Of a stretch of 21,756 bases of DNA, positions 16,926 through 21,599 are shown piece by piece. The DNA is taken from positions 1 through 21,756 of the IMG/VR virus record IMGVR_UViG_3300024520_000543; one strand, 5' to 3'. This DNA comes from a virus. A program made the translations under genes and the position numbers. The stretch's first letter is position 1. Each line of letters starts with the position of its first letter. The notes beneath the pieces were generated by a model. That model ran no database searches and had not been told where the DNA came from. It saw only the letters and a list, made by a program, of their open reading frames with translations.

Positions 16926-16947
16926 GGGACGCGTGGCCACGCGTCCC
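16926..16947. repeat. 22-bp perfect palindrome between fibre and 96-aa gene
   Basis: Two 11-base arms (GGGACGCGTGG and its complement) meet without a loop. No T-run follows, so it is not a standard intrinsic terminator. It may be an RNA hairpin limiting transcription or protecting the upstream mRNA, or a dimeric protein site. It lies directly before the ribosome site of the next gene. Confidence 0.8.
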
Positions 16948-17261: not shown

Positions 17262-17285
17262 TCAGGGGAGGCCGGCCTCCCCTGA
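17262..17285. repeat. 24-bp perfect palindrome bounding the repeat locus
   Basis: Arms TCAGGGGAGGCC and GGCCTCCCCTGA are exact reverse complements with no loop. It sits 6 bp after the 96-aa gene's stop and immediately before the 35-bp repeat array. There is no T-run on either side. It could end tail transcription from the left, or end transcription of the array from the right. Confidence 0.85.
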
Positions 17286-17290
17286 AGCTC

Positions 17291-17889
17291 TTGCGTTATC
17301 GTGGTTCTTGTCCTTTCACAGAGTCTAGCTCGCGCATCGATCTTGAACCTTCGACTCATTCGGCTCACACTATAAGTGTGTTCTTACCGTTGACATGGTT
17401 CGCTCCTTGGCCCGATACCTGCGTCACCAACGAGCTCGCGCATCCACGTTGTTCTTTTGACTGCTTAGGCTCACGTCGAGTCTCCTGGACCGAGTCCCCT
17501 CCTGGTTCGCGAGTTTGGCTTGCGCCTGCATCTCTCATGACTCACGCCACATAGTTGGACCTACCTATGGTGTGGTTTGCTCTCTCGTGCTGGTCCTGCA
17601 TACGCACTGGCTCACGCTTCAGCCTTGCTCCTGTCCAGACCATGGTTCACGCTACTAGAATGTTCCTACTGTTCTACTGGTTCACATCGAGCGTCCTGAC
17701 CTGTTTACCCTCCTGGCTCGCTGATTCGGCTTGTTCATACATCTATCAAGGCTCATTCTCATGTCATAGTCATACGGGTGCGTTGGCTCACTCACGCTCG
17801 TTGTCCTGACGTTGTACTTGGCTCACTCGAGGGCTTTGTTCCTTCAGGAGCGATGGCTCGCACGTCTGCCTTGTTCCTGCCGCCAGATA
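17291..17889 (-). repeat. Array of 35-36 bp degenerate direct repeats (16 clear units and 1 weak unit)
   Basis: On the + strand clear units start at 17326, 17361, 17396, 17432, 17467, 17503, 17538, 17573, 17608, 17643, 17678, 17714, 17749, 17784, 17819 and 17854. All are 35 or 36 bp. Positions 1-8 read TGGYTCRC: in the 16 units position 5 is T in all, position 7 is a purine in all, and positions 3, 6 and 8 fit in 15. Positions 17-26 approximate CTTGTTCCTG (for example 17870-17879), less strictly. The 8 bases between boxes and the 9-10 after box 2 differ in every unit. A weak unit precedes at 17291. The period breaks all reading frames, so the array is not protein-coding. I put it on the minus strand because the adjacent gene runs that way; its transcription is unknown. 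Confidence 0.85.
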
Positions 17890-17892
17890 TGG

Positions 17893-18987
17893 CTAGTCGT
17901 CCTTCTTGTCGGGGGGCTTCTTGTACTTAAAGCCCGGCGGTGGCCAGCCCGGCGGCGGAATGATGTTCGTGTGTCCTTTGTATTCCACGACCCACGGCCT
18001 TACGACAGGCGTGTGATGCTGGAGTTCCCAACTGACCTGGTGCCAATGAGCCAGAAACATCTTCTCGATCCAACGGTAAGCGCGAGCTTGGATATGGGCA
18101 GGGGGAAGCCTCCCGGCAGCGTAGTGCTTATACGCTGCCGTTTCTCTTCCATAGCGCTTTTCTCTGAGAGCCCGCTCAGCTTCGTGAGCCAGCTCGCCCC
18201 GCTCATTAAGATCTTGCTCATAGGCTTTCCTTTCGTAGTAGAGCGGACCATACTGCGACTTGTCGGGATATCTATGGTAGAGCTTAATCTGCACCTGCGC
18301 GAAGCGCCACAGAATTGTTTTCAGGAACGCATTCCATGGACGTCTGGCTAAAGCCTTTGCCAGGTTCTGCACCGTGAGTGGGCGTTGCGTTCCTGTAGCC
18401 GTTGTCGTTGCAAACCTTCGAAGGGTTTCTCCCTTCCGCTTCGTGTTCAGCGCCACCTGGAACAGGTCGTCCAGGTCTATCGGCCCGGCCATCTTGCCAA
18501 TGATGTCACCTATGATCTGTTTGGATTTCTCTTCGCCCTGCCAGGTCTGCATCGGTTGCAGGCCGGCATAACTCCACCAATGCCCGACAGTCTTCGGCGT
18601 ATCCTCGGCAAGATTGGATACCAGGCCGGCACAGATCAACGGTCCGACGCCGAAGAGGTGCGGCTTGGCCCAGTCAGCAACAATAGGATACTGCCTGGAC
18701 CAGGTGTCCAAGGAGTTCTGGCAATTCTTTTCGAACGTGGCATAGTTCCGCACTGCCCATTCGAACAGGTCATAGGGCCGGTTGTCCTTCTTGGCGGCAT
18801 CCAGTTGGTTGTTCATCCTGACGCGTTGGCGCTGTTGATCGTAGTACAACTTCAGCATCAGGCGCACGTCGTCACGGGTCATTTGTTCGGCGGCGCGTTT
18901 GAGATCCTTGTCAAGCCTTTCAACGGCTAACCAATGAATGATTTTTTCTATTGGTTCATTGTCAGGTTCGAATTGATCTAGCTCCAT
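17893..18987 (-). CDS. IS110/Transposase_20-like protein without a visible RuvC-like domain
   Basis: A 364-aa product; start ATG at 18987, with AAAGGA 6 bp upstream (complement of 18993-18998). Residues 14-105 are helical (VRLMLKLYYDQQRQRVRMNN). Residues 112-144 contain FGVGPLICAGLVSNL and WWSYAGLQP, corresponding to the GIGP...YAGL helix-hairpin-helix core of IS110/IS116/IS902 C-terminal domains. RPWNAFLKTILWRF (216-229), YYERKAYEQDLNERGE (250-265) and LPPAHIQARAYRWIEKMFLAHW (294-315, here cited in parts) fit the later helices. The DEDD N-terminus of true IS110 transposases (V-G-I-D start) is missing, and where those carry Ser-Gly after YAGL-P this has Gln150-Gly151. Similar proteins recur in phage and metagenomic contigs, often labelled transposase. 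A domesticated nucleic-acid-binding role tied to the flanking repeat array is my inference. Confidence 0.7.
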   Translation of the reverse strand: MELDQFEPDNEPIEKIIHWLAVERLDKDLKRAAEQMTRDDVRLMLKLYYDQQRQRVRMNNQLDAAKKDNRPYDLFEWAVRNYATFEKNCQNSLDTWSRQYPIVADWAKPHLFGVGPLICAGLVSNLAEDTPKTVGHWWSYAGLQPMQTWQGEEKSKQIIGDIIGKMAGPIDLDDLFQVALNTKRKGETLRRFATTTATGTQRPLTVQNLAKALARRPWNAFLKTILWRFAQVQIKLYHRYPDKSQYGPLYYERKAYEQDLNERGELAHEAERALREKRYGRETAAYKHYAAGRLPPAHIQARAYRWIEKMFLAHWHQVSWELQHHTPVVRPWVVEYKGHTNIIPPPGWPPPGFKYKKPPDKKDD

Positions 18988-18998
18988 GGTATGTCCTT

Positions 18999-19101
18999 TC
19001 GTTCAGCGAGAATTTGTTCAGACGCCAGAATTGGCTCACTTAGGGCCTTTGTGCCTACCATGTCCCTGGCTCGCTCCCTAGCCTTTTTTCTGGTCCTTGA
19101 C
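18999..19101 (-). repeat. Three more 35-bp-type repeat units upstream of the IS110-like gene
   Basis: Units start at 19032 and 19067, each 35 bp. They begin TGGCTCAC and TGGCTCGC and show box 2 variants at the right spacing (TTTGTGCCTA at 19048-19057). A diverged 33-bp unit (18999-19031) has TCGTTCAG and TTTGTTCAG. They are the same family and orientation as the array on the other side, so the gene lies within the array. The TGGCT of a further unit at 17890 runs into the gene's TAG stop. Confidence 0.8.
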
Positions 19102-19104
19102 TAT

Positions 19105-19159
19105 ACAGCAGGGCCTGGTAGCATGGTCCTGCTGTGAGAAGCGTCCCGCATTGTGCGGG
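19105..19159. repeat. Two hairpins closing the repeat locus
   Basis: The first pairs 19105-19115 (ACAGCAGGGCC) with 19125-19135 (GGTCCTGCTGT) around a 9-nt loop, with one G-T pair. The second pairs 19145-19150 (CCCGCA) with 19154-19159 (TGCGGG) around TTG. Neither has a following T-run. They lie just beyond the last repeat unit, upstream of the IS110-like gene in its own direction, and could be the 5' structure of a non-coding RNA. Confidence 0.6.
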
Positions 19160-19748: not shown

Positions 19749-21098
19749 CTATTCAGCACCTGCCGCGAGTTGGTCACACTCCTCAATAGCCTTTCGCACC
19801 TTCGTGGCTGCAATGGGCCGGCGTACAGATTCAAGTGTCACTCCGGCCTTCAACGCATTCATGACACCGACGGCTTCCAGGTAATTGTCAACCTGCATAT
19901 ATTGCCCCCTGTGCCACGGAAGCTGTGACAGGTCATTGCGCATCAGGTTGCGGTTTTCACGCACGGCAATAACCGGAATGCCCTGCTCAAGTGCAGCCAC
20001 CGTTGGCAAACCGAAGCACCCATCCGGGATGACGAGGCATGACACATCTTCTACAGAGAACACATCGGGCCGAGCAAACAACATTTCGTCTCGAATGATC
20101 CTGGGGCTCTTCATGAGCCCCTTCAAGATACACTGGAGGAAGGACAGCGATATCGCCTCCGCTGACATCCTCGGCTCCACAATACCGGCCTCCAGCGTTT
20201 CAACCTTTCTGGATTCAAACATAGGAGAGTGGGCCGTTGGTACGTCGAGTAGCGATGAAATCGTATGAGTCAGCATGGCTTCGACGCCACCCCAGGGGTT
20301 GACCATTTTGCCTTCACTGCGGAAATAGTCGAGGTGATATGCCTGAGGGACACGGATGACCGAGGAGAGTGCGACTGCATCATACGTCCCTGCGGTGTCG
20401 TTGAGAACATCGAGGCAATATTCCAGGTTCTCGACCCGCCCGATGGCACGCCCGGAATCCGCATACTCAGCAACCATGCGAAGAGGCGGCTGAAGGCAAA
20501 CGACCTCGGGACAGTCGAGCCCAAAGGTCGCCCGGGCGGCACTTACGGAGTTAATCGCGGCATCCACAAAGTGCGTGTCCGGATGCTCATCGAGCATGAC
20601 CAAAACACGATTTGTACGCGTTGGCTGGAGACCGACTGTGCCCATCAGCAGGCGTGTGACGATGCTCCCCTCCACATAGAGCGCATTGGCTGGCATCTCA
20701 TTAATATCGGATGCATTGACGACGTTGGGATGGAGGACGAGCCTGTCGCAACTCTCAGACAGGAGACGCGCAACCGCTGTGGCATCACCGGCATGGCCGC
20801 CAATCTCGGCGCCGATGCCGGTGGGGATTAACAGCACGGCATTAAAGCTGTCAGTCGTTTCCAGGGTGCGCCTTCGCATCGCAAACAGGTTCGCGGTGTG
20901 CTCCTGAAGGCTTGCGGGTGCATCCATGATGACGCCGATCTCGCAATTGTATTGGTGATCATTGGACTCCGTGACCGCATAACGGACCGGTATCTCGTCG
21001 GCCTTCAGGTGAAACTCCACACCTGCCCGGATATGATCTATGAGGCGACCGCCGCCGGTGGGTGCGGGAAGCACGATGGCCTTTTCTCTAATGTGCAC
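19749..21098 (-). CDS. DUF3326 family protein
   Basis: A 449-aa product starting at GTG 21098, with AGGAG about 8 bp upstream on the minus strand. Many DUF3326 landmarks are visible: LLIPTGIGAEIGGHAGDATA, LVLHPNVVNASDINEMPANA followed by LYVEGS, GLDCPEVVCLQPPL, VNPWGGVEAMLTH, DVPTAHSPMFES, VIPDGCFGLPTVAALEQGIP and VIAVREN. The biochemical function of this family is not established to my knowledge; members are common in Cyanobacteria and other free-living bacteria. It lies 32 bp after the SpeD-like gene, so the two are likely one operon. This is not a virion gene: it is either cargo carried by the phage or flanking host DNA. Confidence 0.8.
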   Translation of the reverse strand: MHIREKAIVLPAPTGGGRLIDHIRAGVEFHLKADEIPVRYAVTESNDHQYNCEIGVIMDAPASLQEHTANLFAMRRRTLETTDSFNAVLLIPTGIGAEIGGHAGDATAVARLLSESCDRLVLHPNVVNASDINEMPANALYVEGSIVTRLLMGTVGLQPTRTNRVLVMLDEHPDTHFVDAAINSVSAARATFGLDCPEVVCLQPPLRMVAEYADSGRAIGRVENLEYCLDVLNDTAGTYDAVALSSVIRVPQAYHLDYFRSEGKMVNPWGGVEAMLTHTISSLLDVPTAHSPMFESRKVETLEAGIVEPRMSAEAISLSFLQCILKGLMKSPRIIRDEMLFARPDVFSVEDVSCLVIPDGCFGLPTVAALEQGIPVIAVRENRNLMRNDLSQLPWHRGQYMQVDNYLEAVGVMNALKAGVTLESVRRPIAATKVRKAIEECDQLAAGAE

Positions 21099-21130: not shown

Positions 21131-21505
21131 CTACAGTCTCTCGATGAACGTGGAGTTGCGTATCTCACCGCAAAACCATTTTTGGGTGAACTCGGCTGCC
21201 GCGTCAGGATCGTACTCCTTGCAGGAGAAGATGTTGACGAACACCTTCTCCTGTAAATCAAGGGTGTGAATGACGATCGTGCTGGTCAGAATGAAGCAGA
21301 CCGCAGATGTCCCTTTTGTGTGCGGCTCCGTTTGTTGCTCTTCTGGTGGTACATCGACGTCGTCCCAGAAATGCACCTCGCACTTCTCCATGTCAATGAG
21401 GTCGCACAGCTCAGTGAAAAATTGATCGATGCATGTCCGATTAAAGGTTGATGGGTCACAGTCGTGGAGATCCAGTGCCAGTTCATAGCCGTACGGCCGT
21501 ATCAT
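21131..21505 (-). CDS. AdoMet-decarboxylase-like (SpeD-like) protein
   Basis: A 124-aa product from ATG 21505, with AAGGGG upstream; an in-frame TTG at 21523 is the alternative. It keeps the SpeD layout: YGYELALDLHDCDPSTFNR, KGTSAVCFILTSTIVIHTLD and FVNIFSCKEYDPDAA. In standard SpeD the segment is ESH-x-x-I-H-T and the Ser becomes the pyruvoyl group. Here it is TST-x-x-I-H-T, so Ser, the later His and the FSC cysteine remain while Glu and His of ESH are Thr. Such diverged SpeD homologues occur in phages, and some SpeD homologues have been shown to decarboxylate arginine or ornithine instead of AdoMet. Substrate here is unknown. DUF3326 follows. Confidence 0.75.
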   Translation of the reverse strand: MIRPYGYELALDLHDCDPSTFNRTCIDQFFTELCDLIDMEKCEVHFWDDVDVPPEEQQTEPHTKGTSAVCFILTSTIVIHTLDLQEKVFVNIFSCKEYDPDAAAEFTQKWFCGEIRNSTFIERL

Positions 21506-21599
21506 CCTTATCCCCTTGTGCAATGGAAAACCTAGCTTGGCAGGGATTGTCGAATTCGTGCGATAGTACGCTCAAAAACAATTGTTCTCATCGATAGAT

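What the first reader, a model, noticed from the sequence alone, without database searches (positions are those of the whole stretch)
17262..19159. IS110-like gene embedded in an array of 35-bp two-box repeats
Seen: about 20 degenerate direct repeats of 35-36 bp flank a minus-strand gene on both sides (17 downstream, 3 upstream). Each has TGGYTCRC, 8 variable bases, a CTTGTTCCTG-like box and 9-10 variable bases. The period is not a multiple of three, so conservation is not at protein level. Known: IS110-family recombinases use a structured bridge RNA with two short guide segments, encoded next to the transposase. Inference: a repeated unit with two constant boxes and two short unit-specific segments beside an IS110-domain protein could be a multi-guide RNA array, or an array of binding/recombination sites. 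I know no described system with this layout.
Basis: partly seen in the sequence, partly recalled or inferred. Interest (0 to 1): 0.9.

Follow-up and report, generated by a model that had tools for sequence, protein, structure and literature searches.

The report
Phage TIGR-Tas guide-RNA array, nuclease-free
This phage fragment carries a TIGR-Tas locus, a recently described RNA-guided DNA-binding system in which an array of about 20 short two-part guide RNAs surrounds the gene for the protein that uses them; it is a divergent new member of a known kind, not a new kind.

Summary
On the minus strand, 17 units of 35-36 nt follow, and 2-3 precede, a 364-aa gene. Each unit is an edge repeat (GMGYGARCCA), a ~8-nt spacer, a loop repeat (GYAGGNNCAA) and a 7-9-nt spacer. 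The gene is not an IS110 transposase: it passes NCBI's curated cut-off for TIGR-Tas (123.8 bits, cut-off 100), and its model's top nine structure matches are all TasR or TasH. It has no HNH or RuvC nuclease, so it is TasA-like. Eight of eleven relatives, including the experimentally studied Salicola phage CGphi29 TasH locus, carry a dual-repeat array beside the gene on its coding strand, mostly with a near-identical edge box. This copy differs in a ~65-aa insertion in the Nop domain, unusually degenerate repeats, a loop box (CAA) that does not match the edge box (CCA), and a two-unit segment duplicated within the array whose guides then diverged, which bears on the open question of how TIGR arrays get new guides. 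No target was found beyond chance in the window, related phages or (two spacer pairs) IMG/VR.

The parts
17893..18987 (-). tasA-like gene, 364 aa: Nop-type guide-RNA-binding protein without a nuclease domain
   Evidence: NF052498 TIGR_Tas_endo 123.8 bits, cut-off 100; phmmer to TasR 9MTY E 2e-13; Foldseek top nine hits all TasR/TasH; no Pfam domain above threshold
17298..17896 (-). downstream TIGR array, 17 units of 35-36 nt (edge, spacer A, loop, spacer B); the first edge repeat contains the tasA stop codon (TAG in CTAGCCA)
   Evidence: unit table; lag-35 test; same kind of edge box on the tas strand in relatives
19004..19109 (-). upstream TIGR units: 2 clear (19074, 19039) and 1 truncated or degenerate (19109), running up to the tasA ribosome-binding site (AAAGGA)
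17686..17756 (-). units 5-6, one copy of the diverged two-unit duplication
   Evidence: 24 of 30 strict spacer bases equal to units 11-12; null mean 13.7, maximum 20 in 5000 column shuffles
17475..17545 (-). units 11-12, the other copy of the duplication
   Evidence: (family D1)
17262..17285 (.). perfect 24-bp palindrome TCAGGGGAGGCCGGCCTCCCCTGA between the end of the array (minus) and the end of the 96-aa plus-strand gene; likely transcription stop for convergent transcripts (no T run)
   Evidence: sequence; function inferred
19106..19134 (.). hairpin with 10-bp arms (CAGCAGGGCC / GGTCCTGCTG) just upstream of the first unit
   Evidence: sequence; function unknown
18343..18549 (-). approximate part of tasA coding the ~65-aa insertion (residues about 146-214) in the Nop domain, absent from relatives
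   Evidence: alignments A2 and A3; low-confidence helical in the model

Best explanation
A TIGR-Tas locus of the nuclease-free (TasA) type on a tailed-phage contig. The minus strand is transcribed through the short upstream array, tasA and the 17-unit downstream array. A host RNase cuts the transcript in the edge repeats with the help of TasA, giving ~35-36-nt guide RNAs. A TasA dimer holds one guide by the edge and loop boxes. Spacer A pairs with one strand of a target DNA and spacer B with the other, so that a ~16-18-bp site is opened and sharply bent without being cut. The most likely use is to block transcription or replication of a competing mobile element, or to regulate DNA in the infected cell. 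Shown here: the array, its strand by homology, the family of the protein and the lack of a nuclease domain. Taken from published homologues: processing, dual-strand pairing, bending. Inferred: the biological role. The confidence below is for the identity as TIGR-Tas; I put about 0.8 on guide-directed DNA binding by this very copy and about 0.4 on the proposed role.
For: Curated NCBI model above cut-off, while the control genomes in which it rings at all stay below it. PDB sequence match to TasR and fold matches only to TasR and TasH. Eight of eleven relatives have a dual-repeat array of 35-37 nt beside tas on its coding strand, with an edge box like GCGAGCCA (TGCAGCCA in L009): L002, L003, L005, L006 Microcystis phage Mvi-JY20, L007 Salicola phage CGphi29, L009, L010, L012. 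CGphi29 is the SpTasH system whose array was shown to give tigRNAs and guide DNA cleavage (PMC12045711). The tas stop codon lies in the first edge repeat here and in L009 and L006. L009, in the same starred clade (100/99), also has arrays on both sides of the gene with period 35.
Against: The repeats are more degenerate than the published description suggests, and loops of units 4, 6, 12 and 14 are poor, so part of the array may be decaying. The loop C box (CAA) does not match the edge C box (CCA), while published arrays almost always covary. Three relatives (L004, L008, L011), one of them in the same clade, show no dual-repeat array within 1.2 kb. No target was found. No clear promoter or T-run terminator.
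Confidence: 0.95

Rival explanations
1. The locus is a decaying TIGR-Tas remnant: protein intact, but most guides no longer processed because the boxes have drifted.
For: Many loop boxes carry 2-3 substitutions. Between the duplicated segments 5-6 and 11-12 the boxes have diverged about as much as the spacers (roughly 68% and 70% identical, counted by hand), as expected with little constraint on boxes.
Against: The 364-aa frame is open with the family's conserved residues. The edge box is kept in nearly every unit. L009 and L010 also have variable loop boxes next to stable edge boxes, so loop variation may be normal in this branch.
Confidence: 0.2
2. An IS110-type element whose bridge RNA has been multiplied: the array gives recombination guides and the protein recombines DNA.
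For: Distant shared Nop-type RNA-binding domain; weak Transposase_20 score; phrog_4285 is labelled transposase.
Against: No DEDD domain in Pfam, score below the Transposase_20 cut-off, TIGR-Tas model above its cut-off, fold matches only to TasR and TasH, no element ends recognised.
Confidence: 0.01
3. The repeats are DNA-level sites (iterons or operator sites) or a satellite, not guides.
For: Phages do carry repeated binding sites (general knowledge); there are no transcript data here.
Against: Two alternating boxes with strictly spaced variable segments, the same strand and box next to homologous genes in distant phages, and proven transcription and processing in the homologue CGphi29 (PMC12045711).
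Confidence: 0.02

Closest known systems
TIGR-TasA systems (Faure et al. 2025, Science, PMC12045711), e.g. Flavonifractor plautii FpTIGR
   Same: Solo Nop-type protein without nuclease beside an array of alternating edge and loop repeats with ~8-9-nt spacers and a 35-36-nt unit; such systems are common in phages
   Different: ~65-aa insertion, degenerate repeats, edge and loop C boxes that differ; FpTIGR sequence itself was not compared here
Salicola phage CGphi29 TasH (SpTIGR), L007
   Same: Edge AAGCGAGCCA against GMGYGARCCA here, 35-36-nt unit, 8-nt spacers, phage structural-gene neighbourhood
   Different: TasH has an N-terminal HNH nuclease; its loop AAGACAACCA shares the CCA of its edge box
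TasA of IMG/VR contig 3300044577_000130 (L009)
   Same: Same starred clade (100/99), similar N-terminal extension, period 35, arrays upstream and downstream
   Different: No 65-aa insertion, about 40 units, edge TGCAGCCA, no duplicated units detected
IS110 recombinase with bridge RNA
   Same: Related RNA-binding domain; two-part guide RNA
   Different: Here no DEDD catalytic domain, and many guides instead of one bridge RNA

Membership tests
TIGR-Tas | Nop-type Tas protein | tested here: met
   NF052498 123.8 bits over the cut-off of 100; fold hits to TasR and TasH only
TIGR-Tas | Array of two alternating 8-12-nt repeats with ~9-nt spacers, unit ~36 nt | tested here: met
TIGR-Tas | Array upstream and/or downstream of tas, read on the tas strand | tested here: met
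   Edge box on the minus strand only; same strand in relatives
[quoted passage not shown]
   Edge ends CCA, loop mostly CAA; both 10 nt and starting with G
TIGR-Tas | Array starts with a truncated edge repeat and ends with a truncated edge repeat and a terminator | tested here: inconclusive
   Truncated first edge at the stop codon; palindrome at 17262-17285 but no T run
TIGR-Tas | Processing into ~36-nt tigRNAs bound by Tas | not testable with these tools
   Needs RNA sequencing
TIGR-Tas | Tandem-spacer DNA targeting, one spacer per strand | not testable with these tools
   Needs binding assays; target searches gave chance-level hits only
TasA subtype | No HNH or RuvC nuclease domain | tested here: met
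   No Pfam nuclease; only ~30 residues precede the shared domain
IS110 transposase | DEDD catalytic domain plus Transposase_20 above cut-off | tested here: not met

The most novel reading that the evidence does not exclude
TIGR arrays gain new guides by copying blocks of existing units within the array and letting the copies' spacers drift, rather than by capturing foreign DNA. In this window units 5-6 and 11-12 are such a diverged pair, and in a related pair of phages (L003, L005) nearly all guides differ while the flanking DNA is 89% identical.
Probability: 0.35. Interest if true: 0.6.

Novelty: new member of a known kind. Interest (0 to 1): 0.42.

Why it matters
TIGR-Tas is a recently found RNA-guided family whose role, targets and source of guides are unknown, and nuclease-free TasA is its least understood form. 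This locus adds a divergent member with a domain-sized insertion and a readable trace of guide duplication and drift, and its relatives show fast guide turnover between close phages.

Tried and rejected
Close relatives of the Tas protein, tail protein or tail assembly protein by single-sequence pattern scans: none; annotated phages by tblastn with the window protein: none even at E 10. GTDB genomes: one scan, none. Self-targets of the array: best matches no better than shuffled pairs. Targets in the related phage records and loci held, with mismatches: no excess. Two exact spacer pairs against IMG/VR: 1 and 10 contigs (the 10 reduce to about four distinct sites) against 6 for a shuffled pair, so chance. 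Palindromic targets (A like B): no clear signal here (z 1.85). Rfam, tRNA and PADLOC: nothing relevant. Duplicated guides in L009: not significant. IS110 membership: rejected.

Full report
Observation. The array is real. Read on the minus strand, the DNA after the stop codon of the 364-aa gene (17893-18987) splits into 17 units, and the DNA before its start codon into two clear units and one degenerate one. Column by column, each unit has a conserved 10-nt edge box (GMGYGARCCA), about 8 variable bases, a conserved 10-nt loop box (GYAGGNNCAA) and about 7 variable bases; three units (6, 12, 14) are 36 nt, the rest 35. Lag-35 self-identity in 17299-17890 is 0.413, against a shuffle mean of 0.308 and maximum of 0.348 for the best of 41 lags. 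Tandem Repeats Finder missed the array because the units are too unlike.

What the protein is. Pfam gives nothing above threshold; Transposase_20 scores 13.8 bits against a cut-off of 21.3. NCBIfam gives NF052498, TIGR-Tas system RNA-guided endonuclease, at 123.8 bits over a curated cut-off of 100. In the same model's control search, E. coli, Corynebacterium glutamicum and Methanosarcina acetivorans gave matches but none over the cut-off. The only significant PDB sequence match is 9MTY, the TasR structure (identity of the entry from PMC12045711). The AlphaFold model (mean pLDDT 70.6) matches only TasR and TasH chains at the top of the PDB list (ranks 1-9; the next hit has E 1.1). 'Endonuclease' in the model name does not apply here: the N-terminus ahead of the shared domain is about 30 residues, too short for HNH or RuvC, so this is TasA-like by anatomy.

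Relatives. Alignment-based scans of IMG/VR gave nine relatives, and annotated phages gave Microcystis phage Mvi-JY20 and Salicola phage CGphi29. Ten of these eleven pass the TIGR-Tas cut-off. Eight of the eleven have a dual-repeat array beside tas on its coding strand: downstream in most, on both sides in L009. Edge boxes are GCGAGCCA or close to it in L002, L003, L005, L006, L007, L010 and L012, and TGCAGCCA in L009. CGphi29 is the SpTasH locus for which processing into 36-nt tigRNAs and tigRNA-guided DNA cleavage were shown (PMC12045711). This fixes both the family and the functional strand of the window's array. In the window, L009 and L006 the stop codon TAG of tas lies in the first truncated edge repeat (TAGCC), so gene and array are directly joined. 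The tree puts the window with L009 and L008 (100/99), with long branches. L008, L004 and L011 have no dual-repeat array within 1.2 kb; they may have stem-loop arrays of the kind described in the paper or none; not tested.

How it works. By published homologues: transcript cut in the edge repeats, one guide per Tas dimer, spacer A on one DNA strand and spacer B on the other, target opened and bent by nearly 180 degrees. From the paper's C-minus-5 cleavage rule and 8-nt 3' overhangs I derived that a target reads A followed by reverse-complement B on one strand, with 0-2 bp between; the target searches used this. Without a nuclease the likely result is binding and bending. The paper names blocking of transcription or replication of rival elements, or help to integrases, as open options for TasA; I rank blocking first, as inference.

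What is unusual. (1) A ~65-residue insertion (about residues 146-214) between the YAG motif and the conserved WN..L helix, not seen in the ten relatives aligned (L010 has a shorter, unrelated-looking one; L011 was not in these alignments); modelled as low-confidence helices. (2) Loop box ending CAA while the edge box ends CCA; published arrays almost always covary. L009's downstream loops (TTTTAAACA) and L010's loops also depart from their edge boxes, so this may be a trait of some branches. (3) Units 5-6 and 11-12 are a diverged duplication: 24 of 30 strict spacer bases equal, null mean 13.7, maximum 20 in 5000 shuffles; units 6 and 12 also share the 36-nt length and odd loops. Units 13 and 16 are a weaker case (10 of 15). 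(4) L003 and L005 are 88.8% identical over 3.48 kb including tas, but only two unit pairs share spacers (14 and 12 of 16). L009's ~40 units show no significant duplication, so the mechanism is not universal on this evidence.

Targets. None found: own contig, the related phage records and loci held, and two exact spacer pairs in IMG/VR with one shuffled control. The power of the last test is low, because 18 bases are expected by chance in a collection of that size.

Verdict. A solid new member of TIGR-Tas, TasA type.

Noticed in passing
L003 5342-5774 and L005 5171-5538: Two closely related phages (flanks 88.8% identical over 3.48 kb, tas included) share spacers in only two units of their TIGR arrays, which points to fast guide turnover.
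   Followed up: partly
L006 3171-3530 (Microcystis phage Mvi-JY20, PP438412.1): A TIGR array with edge ATGCGAGCC and a T-run terminator follows a gene annotated only as hypothetical protein; the protein is over the TIGR-Tas cut-off.
   Followed up: partly
L009 4057-6576: A TIGR array of about 40 units on both sides of tasA; loop repeats upstream (TGATAACCA) and downstream (TTTTAAACA, TTCTTACCA) differ while edges stay constant.
   Followed up: partly
L008 4893-6092: A 399-aa Tas protein in the window's clade with no dual-repeat array within 1.2 kb and a tRNA-like sequence just downstream.
   Followed up: no
window 19749-21098 and 21131-21523, minus strand: A DUF3326 protein (E 1e-92) and an S-adenosylmethionine decarboxylase-like protein upstream of the locus, possible host-metabolism genes on a phage.
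   Followed up: no
window 16926-16947 and 17262-17285: Two perfect palindromes (22 and 24 bp) flank the 96-aa plus-strand gene between the tail fibre gene and the array.
   Followed up: no
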